From Tubiluchus corallicola (Eukaryota; Priapulida; Priapulimorpha; Priapulimorphida; Tubiluchidae), in assembly GCA_030141605.1 (NCBI GenBank), contig JAQGDQ010000392.1:124001-188000 (forward strand): DNA of 64,000 bases. The letters run 5' to 3'. The translations under genes and the position numbers were made by a program. The notes beneath the pieces were generated by a model that worked only from the letters and a program-made list of their open reading frames with translations, had not been told where the DNA came from and ran no database searches. This document shows positions 36,741 to 62,081 of this stretch, in pieces. Within the stretch, counting starts at the first letter, position 1; every line of letters begins with the position of its first letter.

Positions 36741-36760
36741 GTACACCATGAATTACTGAA

Positions 36761-37033
36761 ATGGCTGCGGCAAGTGTGGACGTGAAAATCTTATTTTTTG
36801 CTAAAAGTCGAGAACTCGTTGGACTGAAAGAAACTACGACAAGTTTGCCTCAGCAGCTGCAAGTATCTGAATTAATATTTCATCTGCTCAAGAAATTTCC
36901 AAGCTTAAAGGTGATAGAATCAAATATTGTTTTAGCATTGAATCATCAATATGTCGACATGAACAGCAGGGATCTGTTGAATTTTAGTGAAGGTGACGAG
37001 CTAGCTATAATACCCCCACTTAGTGGTGGTTAA
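36761..37033 (+). CDS. MOCS2A: Molybdopterin synthase small subunit (sulfur carrier)
   Basis: MOCS2A is the ubiquitin-fold sulfur carrier of molybdopterin synthase in the cytosol. Its C-terminal Gly-Gly is thiocarboxylated by MOCS3 and donates sulfur to precursor Z (cPMP). The 90-aa product opens 'VDVKILFFAKSRELVG' (the first beta strand) and ends 'LAIIPPLSGG', with the required terminal double glycine followed directly by TAA. Length fits the family (human 88). The ORF has no intron. A four-codon upstream ORF (ATG at 36748, TGA at 36757-36759) ends one base before this ATG, and an acceptor-like AG lies at 36740. The large-subunit ORF follows 6 bp after the stop in the same frame. Assignment is secure. 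Confidence 0.96.
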   Translation: MAAASVDVKILFFAKSRELVGLKETTTSLPQQLQVSELIFHLLKKFPSLKVIESNIVLALNHQYVDMNSRDLLNFSEGDELAIIPPLSGG

Positions 37034-37039
37034 ATCAAT

Positions 37040-37468
37040 ATGACTGATCACATATATCTAACATCTAATAAGCTTAGTGTAGATGAAGTTACTCAGATTG
37101 TATCATCTCCCGACTGTGGTGCTATTTCTTTATATGTTGGTACAGTAAAAGACAATTATGATGGAAAGCGTGTTAAACAAGTCGAATATGAAGCTTATAC
37201 GCCGATGGCAGAAGCTGAAATACGAAAAATTTGCGGAATCGTTCGCCAGAAGTGGAGGGTGCAAAACATGGCCGTGTTTCATAGGTTGGGAACTGTGTGT
37301 GTCATGGACGCCATTGTAATATTAGCAATTTCTTCAGAACATCGTCACGATGCCATGGAAGCAGTGACTTTTACAATTAATGCTCTGAGATCAGCTGTTC
37401 CTATATGGAAGCAGGAAATTTACGAGGAGGAAGAAGACACCCGTGCAGATTGTCCTACATCTGACTAA
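37040..37468 (+). CDS. MOCS2B: Molybdopterin synthase catalytic large subunit
   Basis: MOCS2B (MoaE family) binds cPMP and takes two sulfurs from MOCS2A to make molybdopterin. The 142-aa product contains 'LSVDEVTQIVSSPDCGAI', 'VEYEAYTPMAEAEIRKI', the active-site block 'AVFHRLG' and the lysine motif 'VPIWKQEIYEE' near the C-terminus, all family hallmarks. It is shorter than human MOCS2B (188 aa) because the N-terminal extension is missing. The ATG at 37040 is the only sensible start and is separated from the MOCS2A stop by six bases (two codons, same frame). The tandem arrangement means that the second ORF must be reached by reinitiation, leaky scanning, internal entry or an alternative transcript. 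ESF1 starts 163 bp downstream. Confidence 0.96.
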   Translation: MTDHIYLTSNKLSVDEVTQIVSSPDCGAISLYVGTVKDNYDGKRVKQVEYEAYTPMAEAEIRKICGIVRQKWRVQNMAVFHRLGTVCVMDAIVILAISSEHRHDAMEAVTFTINALRSAVPIWKQEIYEEEEDTRADCPTSD

Positions 37469-37631
37469 TTTGTAAAATTAATGCCTTCTTACCTGCTCTT
37501 TTTGTGCAATTGCATGACTAAGTCTGACATTGTGAAATTTGAAAGCTTTTGCTTGTGTGTTATTATCTAGGTTCAGAAGTGTGTGTATTTTGATTAGAAC
37601 TAAACTAAACTAACCAATCTAAACTGCCAGA
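37469..37631 (+). promoter_or_regulatory. MOCS2B-ESF1 intercistronic spacer
   Basis: In these 163 bp I find no AATAAA or ATTAAA. There are two splice-acceptor-like sites, 'TTATTATCTAG' ending at 37570 and 'CTAAACTGCCAG' ending at 37630. The second is preceded by branch-point-like CTAAC. The ESF1 ATG is two bases after the second AG. The spacer could be an ESF1 promoter/5' UTR, or an intercistronic region of a longer transcript. Confidence 0.45.
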
Positions 37632-40600
37632 ATGGGTGATTTTGGAATGGAAGACGCCCGATTCTCTCACATCGGTAGAGATCCGAGATTCAGGAGAATG
37701 CCTAGAAGAGAACGCAAAGTTAAAATTGATAAGCGATTTGAAGCAATGTTCAAGGTACAAACACAATTTTTTTTATTTATTATTATACATTTGTGTGCAT
37801 AAATACATAATGGGAACAGTTTCAATCGAAACAGTGTAAAAATGTTGACTTAAAATTTATACACAGGGTTTTAATCAATGCTACTGTGCAACTTTATGTG
37901 AAAGTCTGATGAAAGTTTCTCAGTGAGTTGCTAAGAATGCCAGTAAATTGATGGTTAGACTAGTAGGTCTTTATTCAACTGTCTTTGCATCTGCTCTCGC
38001 AATACCACAATTTATTATTTAGAAACCTCGCAGTTTTCACTGTACTTACATATTTACATCATGTGAATTTCTTTACATTGAAAGCCAAGTCTAAACTTTC
38101 TGCTGAGATGATTTAAATAAAAACAAAATCATTGTCAATTTTCATTACAGGCACATTTATAGTTAAAAATAACACAGCTTTATTAAAGACTTTTACATCA
38201 AAAACTTAAAAGTTAAAATCATGCCAACCGTTTCGACTAGCTGCTCCTGTCATCATCAATGGTAAATTTACGAACATACAACCAGTTTATATAGGCAGAT
38301 TATTCACTAATTAAGCAGTTAATAGAAGCCAAATAGGTAATGAATAAACAGACCAGTAAAGAAATTGATACAGTAAGTTGAACACTAATTATGTATTTAC
38401 AAAGGCCAAATACGTAATGATTAAGCAGACCTGAAGAAAAGGAATTGATACCGTAACAAATAACTAAGTGTTTGAAAGGAATTGAATTGTCTTGTACATT
38501 AAAAGAATGCTTATTAGGGTACAAAGACAAACTTTCATTTTTTTAATTAGTCTTAGTTATTAGTGAGATAGTTGAATAATTCTCAGTTATTAACTACAAA
38601 ATCATTGTAATGTAGTTTTTGCAAACTGTCTACTTTATACTAATAATAATAATGTTTACTTTTCAATTGAGCAAAGGTGGTACAGTCACGGACTAATAAA
38701 TTACGTTCGTGCGGCACATAATTTGATTTATTTCTCACTTTATTATTTAGGATAAAAGGTTCAAGATGAAGTATGCAGTAGACAAGCGAGGAAGGCCTCT
38801 GCATAATTATTCCACTAACGAGGATTTGAAACAGTATTACGAGCTGTCCTCATCTGATGATGATGATGACAGTGATGATAATCAGTGCAGTGGGGACGTC
38901 AACAGTAATGTTGATGAAATGCGTAAATCGCAGAACGTGAGAAAACCAAATGTTAGTGAAAATTTATCTAAGATATCAGCAAGAGAATTGGTTCTTCCTG
39001 ACAAGCAGAACAAGGAAATAAAAAATCTGCCAGTTGACAAAATACAATCTGGAAAATTCAGTGATGTCATTGATAGTGAAACAGGTATTTTTTATACATC
39101 TTAGTACACTGCAAGCCGTAATCAAGCATTCAAAGGTGGAGCCTACTCAAACAGATGTTTGTGGCAGAATTGGAGCCTAGTTCGTTACGAAAGCTAGGCC
39201 ATTGGACCGACAGAGTGCAAGTAAAATGCAGAGTAGGGGTGAGCAATCTGTATCGAAGAGTGAATTTGAATCAAATTAACTTTGTGGCTTTGGAGTACAA
39301 ATTAAACCGAATTTCAGCATTTTCGAATCCAAATTGAATTCAAATTCAGCGTTGAAGGTTTTCGAATAAATTTCTGAATCATTAATAAAAAGCAGTCTTG
39401 CAGAGATCATGCATATTACTTGATTTTGTTCTGCAGTTAAAACACTAATAATTTGTTTACAAATTATGTGCAGAAATCACAACTAAATTGTGTGCATTAT
39501 ATTTCAAATTTTTTAATGATAAAGAATAAAAGTAGTTGAAGCGCTGAATTGTTTGAATGTGTAATTTTATATTCGAATCGAATTCCAATTAAAAAACTGG
39601 TTCGAATCGAATTCAAATGTTTGATGCTCACCCCTAGTGCAGAGAGAACTTATTAATAGCTAATAGGTTGGTGATTTGTTTTCATTCTGACAGTTATAAA
39701 ACTTAATAAAATATGTAATAGTTTATGCTCACGATGAGTCCACAAGCTCTGAGTGAGTATTTAGTAAATATTACTAATAAGTAACAAAGATGCACCTATT
39801 CAATAAATAACTGAATAGAGACTTTAAAGGAATGAACAAGTCACTCAGCATGTTGGGTTTACTTTACTGTTATCACTTAAACTCAGAAGAATATAAATGT
39901 AACAAAAGAAATTTGCAAAAACTTTCTATAAAGCATAAATCTAAAATATACTACCTCTGAATAGAAATTTTCAGGCGTGGTGGTTGCCACCATTTGTTTG
40001 AAAATTATGACGCAGCTGGGGGATTTCTTAATTTTTAGTAAGTGCATTGTGGCTTTCCGTCACCGCACACTGTTCAAACTAATTCAGATTTCTGCAGCTT
40101 ACCTAATATTCATGCAAAAAGGTTAGAAAATCAGCTATCTAATTTTTTGTAAAACTTATACTTTTAGTAAAGATTGACAGTGCGCTACTTTTCTTCAGGA
40201 CGAATGACGTCATTGAAAGAAAAATGGGTATTGAAAATGCGAGTGTGCAAGCATGAAGTGGTTGTGACTTTAATTTGATTTTGCTAGTTATGTGAGGCAC
40301 TTATTGCAGTTTTCTTACCAAATTCTTTTAATAAGCGTAACTTTCCAGAAGGCTGGGCCTTTCTTTTAAACAAAGAGTCTACCAATGAATGCTTACCGGG
40401 ACAGGGTAGACTAAACTGCATAGAGTTTAATTGTTATACCTTTTTGTTAGCGTTTGCAGAAGTTTGACCTTAATCAGTTGCAATTAGACTGTTGCTAAGT
40501 ATACTGCAAAATGTGAAAAGAAAAACCCCGTTAACGTTTGTTGAAGGCTACCCCTTTTGAAGTCTTGTAGAATGAAATGTTGAAGTTCTTTTAGTAATAC

Positions 40601-49600: not shown

Positions 49601-50349
49601 AGCCCAGCACAGTGCGCTCACAGCTCAAGCAACATGGTGTTTGGCTGTTGCGTGCATGTCTGAGATAAGATGCTTTTCTTTAGGTAGAAAGAGTGCTGTG
49701 CTCACCGCTGTGTGTGTTGTATTCTTGAACTGCGACAGATTAGGCTATTCGTAAGCAAACAATATTTTTTGCTTAGGATTTTATCAAGTTTATGTATAAA
49801 TTTTTGTATGTTTGTTTGTTTAAAATTACAATTTACAACATTAAAATTGCACATGTTTGTTTCGTTTTACACAGTATTAAAACATTGGCTAAAAATTTTC
49901 TGAAGCAGCACCCCCAGTAATTTTAGCTACGAACCATCCCTGAGTGTGACCTACCATGATAATGTGAATGGAGTTCTGCTAATTAATCTATGGTACATTA
50001 ATGACCCTTCTTGGTCAATGATTTGAACGATTAATTATGGCGTTATGATACATTTATCTCTGTTGTTTTATTCTAGATTGATGTAGAGGATCCCAGATTT
50101 GCGGCTGTATTTTCATCACACCACTTCAATATAGATCCGTCAGATCCTCAGTACAAAAAAACGACAGCTATGGACAAAATCATCTCAGAAAAGCAGAAGA
50201 GGCGGTTGAAAAAAGACGAGGCTGAGCATTCCAAAGCTCCAAAATTAGACACTGATAAGAGGGAGAGGGATTCTGCCCCTCTCGAACTATCCCAACTAGT
50301 CAAATCTGTGAAATCTAAAACACAACAGCACATGCTAAAGAAAAAATGA
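37632..50349 (+). CDS. ESF1: ESF1 nucleolar pre-rRNA processing protein
   Basis: ESF1 acts in the nucleolus in 18S rRNA maturation. Fourteen exons: 37632-37754, 38751-39084, 40714-41202, 41870-42039, 42894-43023, 44084-44243, 45348-45465, 46338-46461, 46891-47064, 47515-47642, 48394-48493, 49007-49077, 49257-49394, 50077-50349. Phases join to 843 codons plus stop (human 851). Landmarks: N-terminal '[20 protein letters not shown]' and '[11 protein letters not shown]', then a long acidic Ser/Asp region in exon 3. Next come '[19 protein letters not shown]', '[20 protein letters not shown]', '[15 protein letters not shown]' and '[15 protein letters not shown]'. A lysine-rich stretch precedes the C-terminal NUC153 domain ('[20 protein letters not shown]'). 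Donors after exons 8 (GTCTGT) and 9 (GTTGGT) are weak but keep phase and similarity. Identity is secure. Confidence 0.97.
38322..38470. repeat. Tandem duplication, 76-bp period
   Basis: 'GCCAAATAGGTAATGA' at 38328 recurs as 'GCCAAATACGTAATGA' at 38404. It is followed in both by 'CAGACC..' and 'GAAATTGATAC' or 'GGAATTGATAC'. Two units lie in ESF1 intron 1. A 'CCGTTTCGACTAGC' phrase upstream at 38229 resembles the loop of the hairpin at 21.6 kb. Confidence 0.65.
39234..39636. mobile_element. hAT-type MITE
   Basis: The 403-bp element begins 'TAGGGGTGAGCA' and ends with its exact reverse complement, the classic hAT superfamily terminus. The flanking 8-mers are ATGCAGAG (39226-39233) and GTGCAGAG (39637-39644), a 7-of-8 match to the 8-bp target duplication expected of hAT. 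The interior is rich in CGAAT/ATTCG motifs and has no transposase. It lies in ESF1 intron 2, between exons 38751-39084 and 40714-41202. Confidence 0.85.
43853..43943. repeat. Long hairpin, 37-bp arms
   Basis: Arms 43853-43889 and 43907-43943 are inverted repeats with three mismatches in 37, around a 17-nt loop. The arms begin 'TAATGAAATGTGCTTCAG' and end 'AATAATGGTAC'. The element lies in ESF1 intron 5, so the pre-mRNA would carry a strong stem. Related 'GTACAAAAAT' and 'TGTGCACTGTACAATGGTAC' phrases lie just upstream. It may be a microRNA-like precursor or a foldback transposon remnant; I cannot decide. Confidence 0.85.
44796..45185 (+). repeat. Interspersed repeat family A, copy 2
   Basis: It aligns with the copy at 4.67 kb from 'TTAATAATTTAAAATGTTC' through 'CAACTGGTAAAACGGCAC', 'TTAGTTAGTGATG', 'CAAAATGGCTGTGTCTAGTG' and 'AAAATTTCAAAATGAATTTT'. 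It is in the plus orientation, within ESF1 intron 6. Coordinates at both ends are approximate. Confidence 0.8.
47170..47430 (+). mobile_element. Possible tRNA-derived SINE fragment
   Basis: 'GTATAGCTGAGTGGTCA' at about 47179 has the A-box form TAGCNNAGTGG. It is followed by 'ACTGAGATTAAGAGGC', which resembles a tRNA anticodon arm and variable loop. A clean B box at tRNA spacing is missing; a looser 'GAGTTCAGTACTC' occurs 80 bp on. It lies in ESF1 intron 9. This is a weak call and the limits are arbitrary. Confidence 0.28.
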
Positions 50350-59298: not shown

Positions 59299-61890
59299 GA
59301 CATAGACATAGACATAGAACATTTATTTTCTCCATTTGTTTGACATGACAAGTTTTTTTTAAATATTACTTAATTATAGTAGTGGAGCAGGGCAGGGAAG
59401 GACCATAGGGTCATCTAGTCTCCTGCCCTGTCTTATAATTAAATTAGTATATTAAAAGTAAATGGTGAGACTGCGGATAACAAAATCAAATAGGAAAGAA
59501 ATAATAATATTAAACAGTATAAATGAAAACAAAGTATAAATGAAAACAGTATAAGTGAAAACAAAAAATAATAAAGTTAGATGACACCTAAATCTAAACA
59601 AAACAATACAATTAATACAAGTAATTATGATTATTACATATATTTTCAAATAGGGGCCTTAATGACAGGGGATTTTGACTGTATGGAGAGATAAAATAAG
59701 TATCAAAAAAGTGTAATATAGAAAATTTAAGAGAAAAAGTTAGTATAAGAAAGAGCAACAATTACTTAGGAGATGAGAAAAAAAACACTTGATAGCTTGC
59801 TTATTAGTCTTACAAGTTATGTATTACAGGTATATTCATTTAGTAAGAATTTTCTGTATTTTTTGGAAGCAGAAAATAAGCTACCTCCAAAGGTATCTTT
59901 TGGCAACGAGTTCCATAATTTAACTCCTCGTGATTTTAAGCTATTGAAACCATGTCGGGTAAAAAATCTCTCCACAAAATACTGTTCATTAGAAGCAGCT
60001 CTTGTGGAGTATGAATGTATATCAGAAACATTAGTGAAATATTCACTAAAAAGTTCGGGTAATAAACCAGCATTGAATTTATACATAAATTTGAACAACT
60101 CAAGATTGTAAATATCTCTTACTTTTAAAATTTCTAATTTTACGAACGATGGTGTAGCATGATCATATTTGCGAGCAAAAGTTATTAGTTTTACTATTTT
60201 GTTTTGTTGTGTCTGTATTAATTTTTGAATTGATGCAAAAGCCGTACCCCATGTTAGGATGGAATATTGTAAATAAGGGAAAACTAACGAATTATATAGA
60301 AGTTTCAGAATATATTGGTCAACGTAGTGCCTTACTTTTAAAATTATTCCAGTAATTCGACTTAATTTGTATGTTATGTGTTTTATATGTGGTTCCCATG
60401 TTAATTTATTATCAATGAGTAGGCCCAAGTATTTGATGTTGTCTGTTTCTTCAATTTTGTGTTTGTTTATTATAATATGAAATTTTGGATTATTAGCATT
60501 GTTAATTTGCTTATTGTTGATTATCATAAATTTGGTTTTTTTTGTAGTTAATTGATAGCTGGTTTGCCCTCATCCACAGGTCTATTTTTTTCATTTCGTC
60601 ATTAACAGATTTTTGCAAATTATTTATATTGGAGTCAGACATGAACAAATTAGTGTCATCGGCAAATATTCGGGTTTGAAAGTTGCTGCATGTGGGAAGA
60701 TCGTTAATATAAATTAAGAATAGAAGAGGTCCTAAATTAGAGCCTTGTGGCACTCCACACGATATGTGTTTATAGTCTGATGATACATTGTTAATAGATA
60801 TGAATTGTTTTCTGTTAGTTAGATATGACTGAATTAGTTGCAAAGGTAGACCTCTGATGCCATAATGGTTTAATTTGGCTATTAGTATACTATGCTGTAC
60901 GGTATCAAAAGCTTTTGATAAGTCTAAAAATATTCCGCAATTCAGTAATTTTTTGTCAGTGTCTAGAGAGATCGTGTCAATTAATTCGGATACAGCAAGG
61001 GCAGTTGAATAATTTTTTCTGAAACCAAACTGGTATTTACTTAGGATATTACTTTTCACAACAAACTGGTATAATCTCTTGTAAATTAGCCTCTCAAAAA
61101 CTTTTGATACTGGTGATAAGAGAGATATTGGTCTGTAATTGCCAGGTTCATGTGGAGAGCCAGTTTTATATAAAGGAATAACTTTTGCTATTTTTAATAT
61201 ATTTGGAAAAGTTCCAGCATTAACCGATTTATTAAACAGTAATGTGAGTATTGGTGAAATAATTTGACTTGCAGATTTAAAAAAAGATATTGGTATATTT
61301 TGTGGTCCTGGTGATTTGTTTGAATTAAGTGTGTTTAAAAGTGTGCATGTTTCATTTTCAGTAATAGGATTAATGAAAAAAGAATTTGGGTTAGGGTTTT
61401 TCAAAAAGTCAGTAAAATTAACGTTAGGTTTAGGTATTTTGGCAGCCATGTCAGGGCCTATATTTACAAAAAACTCATTTAGTTTACTGGCAATATCATA
61501 TGTATCTGTATAGTCCACATTATTTATTGTTAACTTACTTGGTGTTTGTCGTGTTTTTGGATCAGTTTTTATAATACTGTTTATTGTTTCCCAAGTTTTT
61601 TTCATGTTATTCTTGTGTTTTTGCAATGCTTCAGTGTAATATTGTTTTTTTGATGATTCTTTGACATGATTTAATTTATTTGAGTAGGATTTGTAGTAGA
61701 TTTGTTTGTATAAATTATTTGAGAGTTTGTGTGATTTGTAAAGACGTGATCTGATTTTAATACTATTTAAAATTCCTTTAGTGATCCATGGTTTTTGAAA
61801 TGTAATAGTGTCTTTCCTAGACAGAGTTTGCAAAGGAAAATGATTATTAAACACATTGAAGAGTATTTCATTAAATACTGTAAGTGTAAA
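59299..61890 (-). mobile_element. Non-LTR retrotransposon, 5'-truncated
   Basis: On the minus strand the reverse transcriptase region (61854-60511, 447 codons) has 'FLDLSKAFDTV' (motif A), 'GVPQGSNLGPLLFLIYINDL' (motif B) and 'FADDTNLF' (catalytic motif C). The frame then shifts at a run of eight A's near 60536-60543, and the rest continues at 60527-59817 through 'WGTAFASIQKLIQTQQNKIV' to a C-terminus with 'LWNSLPKDTF'. After the stop comes a 3' UTR with AATAAA and a (TATGTC)3 tail at 59299-59317. The endonuclease domain is absent; in-frame similarity stops near 61.89 kb. The motifs and microsatellite tail fit the Jockey/CR1/L2 group. Only one lesion is seen, so it is young. Confidence 0.93.
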
Positions 61891-61904
61891 TAAGAAACTA
61901 AAAT

Positions 61905-62081
61905 TACACCTCTATTAAAAGAGACTGTCATTACCCCACCTTTACCCTAAATACGGCGCACCAGGCAAAAGTAACATCGATCCATTTTTAAAGTGTTTGG
62001 TATGACCTGGCCTCTGAGTCGAACTCACTACCTCACAGACAGAATGCGGACGCATTACCTCTAGACTAAACTGTCCGCTCA
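61905..62081 (-). mobile_element. tRNA-derived SINE
   Basis: Minus strand: A box 'TAGTCTAGAGGTA' near 62069-62057 and B box 'GAGTTCGACTC' at 62026-62016, about 40 bases apart as in tRNA promoters. The tRNA-like head runs from 'GAGCGGACAG' at 62081 to about 62010. The ends do not pair into an acceptor stem, so it is not a working tRNA. A non-tRNA body follows ('TTTGCCTGGTGCGCC'). The LINE's truncated 5' end abuts or interrupts its 3' side. Confidence 0.6.

What the first reader, a model, noticed from the sequence alone, without database searches (positions are those of the whole stretch)
36761..37468. MOCS2A and MOCS2B lie in tandem in one frame, separated by one stop and two codons
The sequence shows the small-subunit ORF ending Gly-Gly-TAA, six bases, then the large-subunit ATG, with the distance a multiple of three. 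Known: the human MOCS2 locus uses overlapping ORFs in different frames, with first-exon choice; insects have a bicistronic locus. Here the reading frame is shared, so stop readthrough would make a fusion, which would bury the Gly-Gly that must be free for thiocarboxylation. The second ORF must be reached by reinitiation, leaky scanning or a separate transcript. This would be a compact natural case of coupled translation in an animal.
Basis: partly seen in the sequence, partly recalled or inferred. Interest (0 to 1): 0.7.

Follow-up and report, generated by a model that had tools for sequence, protein, structure and literature searches.

The report
Two-gene molybdenum-cofactor locus, odd enzyme
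In this animal genome the two subunits of a molybdenum-cofactor enzyme sit back to back, an arrangement already known from flies and humans, but the paired large subunit carries changes at two key active-site positions, while a second large-subunit gene elsewhere in the genome keeps the normal ones.

Summary
MOCS2A (36761-37033, ends Gly-Gly-TAA) and MOCS2B (37040-37468) lie in tandem, each in one exon and in one frame, with ATCAAT between stop and start. A shared frame has a 1-in-3 chance and shows nothing by itself. Tandem, bicistronic MOCS2 is known: Drosophila Mocs2 is annotated as dicistronic and called highly conserved, and human MOCS2 is bicistronic with overlapping frames. The layout is a new member of a known kind; how the second ORF is translated cannot be settled without RNA data. 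A fusion need not be dead: MoaD-MoaE fusions cut by JAMM proteases are known in prokaryotes.

It keeps the catalytic lysine (E. coli K119), the substrate-pocket arginine (R39) and a C-terminal WKxNKE motif. The copy paired with MOCS2A has K119 to R and R39 to K and lacks that motif. The same Lys-to-Arg change inactivates Haloferax MoaE in vivo. The paired copy is still predicted to fold like human MOCS2B (0.6 Å). I infer that it is catalytically weak or dead and that the unlinked copy does the chemistry with the only MOCS2A found.

The parts
36748..36759 (+). Possible mini upstream ORF (ATG AAT TAC TGA) whose stop lies one base before the MOCS2A ATG; its ATG has A at -3. Present only if the transcript includes it.
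   Evidence: sequence
36761..37033 (+). MOCS2A (MoaD/ThiS type) small subunit of molybdopterin synthase, 90 aa, ends Gly-Gly-TAA, single exon; the only animal-type copy found in the genome
37034..37039 (+). Intercistronic spacer ATCAAT, keeps the two ORFs in one frame; MOCS2B ATG has A at -3
37040..37468 (+). MOCS2B (MoaE type) large subunit paralogue, 142 aa, single exon; R39 to K and K119 to R (E. coli numbering), acidic C-terminus without the WKxNKE motif
37148..37150 (+). Codon AAA (Lys37) at the position of the cPMP-pocket arginine R39; Arg in human, the unlinked copy and all 12 prokaryote loci
37388..37390 (+). Codon AGA (Arg117) at the position of the catalytic lysine K119; Lys in human, the unlinked copy and all 12 prokaryote loci
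37632..37754 (+). Probable first exon of an ESF1-like gene, 163 nt after the MOCS2B stop on the same strand, no AATAAA or ATTAAA in between. Neighbour, possibly part of the same transcription unit.
   Evidence: the ESF1 name rests on the NUC153 exon at 50077-50346 and on memory

Best explanation
This is an animal MOCS2 locus in the known bicistronic layout: one mRNA most likely carries MOCS2A and, nine bases after the first base of its stop codon, MOCS2B. The second start is reached by post-termination reinitiation and/or leaky scanning (inferred from layout and relatives; no RNA seen). The product of the second ORF is a well-folded MoaE-type paralogue that has lost the catalytic lysine and the substrate-pocket arginine, each by an Arg/Lys exchange, and the conserved C-terminal motif. 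It is therefore probably catalytically weak or inactive. The molybdopterin synthase activity this animal needs would be supplied by the unlinked, canonical MOCS2B on contig C1244, working with the single MOCS2A. The paired copy probably acts as a MOCS2A-binding or MOCS2B-dimerising, non-catalytic partner, comparable to the non-catalytic MoaE-like part of MBIP.
For: Layout. Bicistronic relatives. Second copy. It lies on host DNA: its flank holds a repeat with 40 scored copies, the others 93-97% identical, on many contigs, and the repeat in the window is likewise widespread, with contig C1451 carrying both. Residues: R39 and K119 equivalents are Arg and Lys in 12 of 12 prokaryote MoaE loci and in L002, in human MOCS2B, and in the Aquifex and S. 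aureus chains; the paired copy has Lys and Arg. The Haloferax K240R variant, equivalent to K119R, is expressed but no longer complements a moaE deletion (PMC4443979). R39, H103 and R104 form the cPMP anion pocket (PMC9916421). Fold kept: pLDDT 91, 0.6 Å to 5mpo_C. ORF under constraint: differences from L002 by codon position are 43, 26, 77 over 132 codons, and 70 residues are identical. Pathway needed: three sulfite-oxidase-type matches and MOCS1A-type exons.
Against: No transcript, ribosome or protein data. Both substitutions exchange one basic residue for another and could partly compensate each other; H103, R104 and K126 are kept. The Haloferax result comes from a distant homologue. A base error in the assembly at either codon cannot be excluded here. 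Overall the paired copy has not evolved faster than L002 (23 versus 21 private changes).
Confidence: 0.55

Rival explanations
1. Ordinary bicistronic MOCS2: the paired MOCS2B is the working enzyme subunit and tolerates the Arg/Lys exchanges; the unlinked copy is a redundant or tissue-specific duplicate.
For: Arrangement and partner are ancestral; Pfam score, fold and 60% identity to human MOCS2B are all normal. Basic charge is kept at both sites, and H103, R104 and K126 are unchanged.
Against: Both sites are invariant in every other sequence examined. The same Lys-to-Arg change abolished function in Haloferax. The C-terminal motif is also lost, while the other copy keeps everything.
Confidence: 0.3
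2. Separate transcripts: MOCS2B is made from its own mRNA through an internal promoter, an alternative acceptor or a trans-splice acceptor inside MOCS2A, for example the CCCCCACTTAG ending at 37023, so no coupled translation is needed. (This concerns expression only and can be true together with either reading of the enzyme.)
For: A pyrimidine-rich YAG site lies 16 nt before the MOCS2B ATG. MOCS2A and the mini upstream ORF have acceptable start contexts, which makes plain leaky scanning inefficient.
Against: That site is also simply the Pro-Pro-Leu-Ser coding sequence. Fly and human relatives use shared mRNAs. It is not known whether this animal trans-splices.
Confidence: 0.25
3. Stop-codon readthrough gives a MOCS2A-MOCS2B fusion that is later cleaved after Gly-Gly, as in prokaryotic MoaD-MoaE fusions.
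For: Frame is shared with no further stop; cleavable fusions exist in Haloferax and Deinococcus (PMC4443979, PMC8832034).
Against: Shared frame has a one-in-three chance. The second ORF has its own ATG with A at -3. No readthrough signal was identified, and the MOCS2 relatives found in the literature make separate proteins.
Confidence: 0.04

Closest known systems
Drosophila Mocs2A (CG42503) / Mocs2B (CG10238) dicistronic locus
   Same: Small-subunit ORF (90 aa in both) precedes the large-subunit ORF on one strand; described as highly conserved (PMC4528330, PMC2276209)
   Different: Fly Mocs2B is fused to an MBIP domain and keeps the catalytic residues (PMC9228816); here the paired copy is short, has no MBIP part and has changed catalytic residues, with a second MOCS2B elsewhere
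Human MOCS2 (bicistronic, overlapping frames, seven exons)
   Same: Same two proteins from one locus, small subunit first; MOCS2B 60% identical
   Different: Human ORFs overlap by 77 bp in different frames and are split by introns (PMC9607355); here there is no overlap, a shared frame and no introns
MBIP (ATAC subunit with MoaE-like N-terminus)
   Same: MoaE-derived protein that lost catalytic residues but may still bind the small subunit (PMC9228816)
   Different: The window protein has no MBIP region and remains much closer to MOCS2B
Prokaryotic MoaD-MoaE fusions (Deinococcus, mycobacterial MoaX)
   Same: MoaD unit directly followed by MoaE unit in frame
   Different: Those have no stop codon between the units; here a TAA and a new ATG separate them

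Membership tests
MOCS2A / MoaD | ThiS-type ubiquitin fold with free C-terminal Gly-Gly | tested here: met
   Pfam ThiS, 1-76 of 76 positions; ends PPLSGG-stop; best PDB hit human MOCS2A
MOCS2B / MoaE (catalytic) | MoaE fold and family profile | tested here: met
   Pfam 121.8 bits; model 0.6 Å to 5mpo_C
MOCS2B / MoaE (catalytic) | Catalytic lysine K119 | tested here: not met
   Arg in the paired copy; Lys in L002, human and 12 of 12 prokaryote loci
MOCS2B / MoaE (catalytic) | Substrate anion pocket R39, H103, R104 | tested here: not met
   H103 and R104 present, R39 replaced by Lys
MOCS2B / MoaE (catalytic) | Molybdopterin synthase activity with MOCS2A | not testable with these tools
   needs purified proteins or complementation
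Bicistronic MOCS2 locus | Small- and large-subunit ORFs in tandem on one strand | tested here: met
Bicistronic MOCS2 locus | One mRNA carrying both ORFs | not testable with these tools
   no transcript data available
MBIP | C-terminal MBIP region after the MoaE-like part | tested here: not met
   ORF stops at 142 aa, 10 to 15 residues beyond the MoaE core; the next gene is ESF1-like. A genome search with a remembered fly MBIP segment found nothing and is not informative

The most novel reading that the evidence does not exclude
The ancestral MOCS2 bicistronic gene of this animal has turned its second cistron into a MoaE pseudoenzyme, still made next to MOCS2A, while an old unlinked duplicate took over catalysis: a natural separation of the structural or regulatory role of MOCS2B from its chemistry. 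The paired protein could dimerise with the active copy or bind MOCS2A to tune cofactor synthesis.
Probability: 0.4. Interest if true: 0.55.

Novelty: new variant of a known kind. Interest (0 to 1): 0.4.

Why it matters
MOCS2 is one of very few bicistronic genes shared by insects and mammals, and non-catalytic roles of MoaE-type proteins (ATAC, kinase signalling) are under study. An animal with one MOCS2A, an active-site-altered paired MOCS2B and a canonical unlinked MOCS2B would let the catalytic and non-catalytic roles be tested apart. The tandem layout alone is ordinary.

Tried and rejected
Shared frame as a signal: rejected, chance 1/3. AUG depletion in ORF1 as a sign of leaky scanning: none (1 out-of-frame ATG, 1.7 expected, P 0.40). 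Special RNA structure at the junction: none (z -0.15). A missing C-terminal exon or frameshift hiding the WKxNKE motif: no such motif in any frame of the window. C1244 as a contaminant contig: unlikely, see the repeats; the minisatellite beside it was uninformative because it was found only there. A second animal MOCS2A: the other ThiS matches scoring above the cut-off lie among bacterial-type genes on other contigs. MBIP search with a fly segment written from memory: nothing, and no positive control. Identification of the species through COX1: no match in the assembly. Rfam and tRNA scans of the window: nothing. No collection of animal genomes was available, so how widespread either feature is in related animals is untested.

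Full report
What is there. On the + strand, 36761-37033 encodes a 90-aa ThiS-family protein ending in Gly-Gly, and 37040-37468 encodes a 142-aa MoaE-family protein. [quoted passage not shown] The ORFs are separated by TAA and ATCAAT and share one frame; each is a single open exon. A shared frame occurs by chance in one spacing of three.

Whether the layout is new. It is not. FlyBase curators describe Mocs2 and CG42503 as a highly conserved dicistronic pair (PMC4528330), and an independent screen found the same bicistronic transcript with a 90-aa upstream ORF (PMC2276209). Human MOCS2 encodes both proteins in frames that overlap by 77 bp, with leaky scanning as the accepted mechanism (PMC9607355; PMC3923131). 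What differs here is that the locus is intronless, does not overlap and shares a frame.

How the second ORF may be translated. The MOCS2B ATG has A at -3. The MOCS2A ATG has G at -3 and G at +4, and a mini upstream ORF (36748-36759) would end one base before it. ORF1 is not depleted of ATGs and the junction has no unusual structure. A pyrimidine-rich YAG site ends at 37023, but it is also the Pro-Pro-Leu-Ser coding sequence. I therefore favour a shared mRNA by analogy with fly and human and leave the exact step (reinitiation, leaky scanning, alternative transcript) open. A readthrough product need not be dead, since MoaD-MoaE type fusions that JAMM proteases cleave are known (PMC4443979; PMC8832034).

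The second MOCS2B. A genome search found exactly two MoaE-type genes, by protein and by Pfam profile: the one in the window and one on contig C1244 (L002, 148 aa). Only one animal-type MOCS2A was found; the other ThiS matches above the cut-off lie among bacterial-type genes. C1244 belongs to the host: beside the gene is a repeat with at least 40 scored copies, the others 93-97% identical, on many contigs, and the window's own repeat is equally widespread, with C1451 carrying both. The two MOCS2B proteins are 69/130 identical to each other and 77/129 and 79/129 to human, so the duplication is old.

The active site. At the position of E. coli Arg39, which forms the cPMP anion pocket with His103 and Arg104 (PMC9916421), the paired copy has Lys (AAA, 37148). 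At the position of the essential Lys119 it has Arg (AGA, 37388). Both positions are unchanged in L002, in human MOCS2B, in three PDB chains from Aquifex and S. aureus and in 12 of 12 prokaryote loci. Those loci were fetched with patterns from other parts of the protein, so they were not selected for these residues. The paired copy also lacks the C-terminal WKxNKE motif seen in L002; no such motif occurs elsewhere in the window. The human WKxN part is visible.

What this implies. In Haloferax the equivalent Lys-to-Arg variant was expressed but lost complementation (PMC4443979). Yet the paired copy is not a decayed gene: it is intact, its differences from L002 are concentrated at third codon positions (43, 26, 77), and it is predicted to fold like human MOCS2B at 0.6 Å over 127 positions. 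The genome has three sulfite-oxidase-type matches and MOCS1A-type exons, so cofactor synthesis is expected to be needed. The simplest reading is that the unlinked copy does the chemistry and the paired copy has become a non-catalytic partner. A precedent exists: the MoaE-like part of MBIP lost catalytic residues but may still bind the small subunit (PMC9228816).

Shown and inferred. Shown: layout, gene identity, two MOCS2B genes, substitutions, conservation in the sample, predicted fold. Inferred: shared mRNA, loss of activity, division of labour. Not known: the species, expression of either copy, and whether related animals show the same split.

Limits. The conservation sample is small; base errors in the assembly at two codons cannot be excluded without reads; the two exchanges keep the charge and might compensate. 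No animal genome collection was available.

Noticed in passing
37469-37754: An ESF1-like gene starts 163 nt after the MOCS2B stop on the same strand, with no AATAAA or ATTAAA between; the next such signals lie inside its first intron. Possibly one longer transcription unit.
   Followed up: partly
36748-36759: A mini ORF ATG-AAT-TAC-TGA ends one base before the MOCS2A ATG; it would be an upstream ORF if included in the mRNA.
   Followed up: partly
L007 (C276), L008 (C1597), L009 (C1353): Contigs with bacterial-type genes (thiS with hemH and ligA; thiS with a pyruvate-kinase-like gene; thiS and thiF with glyS) are in the assembly, probably associated bacteria (gene names other than thiS are by eye).
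   Followed up: partly
L031, L032, L033: Three sulfite-oxidase-type (Oxidored_molyb) genes with single open frames of 566-581 codons, more than the one usual in animals (the comparison is from general knowledge).
   Followed up: no
L002:1990-2960: A tandem array with units of about 161 nt lies beside the unlinked MOCS2B and was found only on that contig.
   Followed up: partly
59820-61911: Non-LTR-type reverse transcriptase element on the - strand with copies 98-100% identical on more than 25 contigs, so recently spread.
   Followed up: partly
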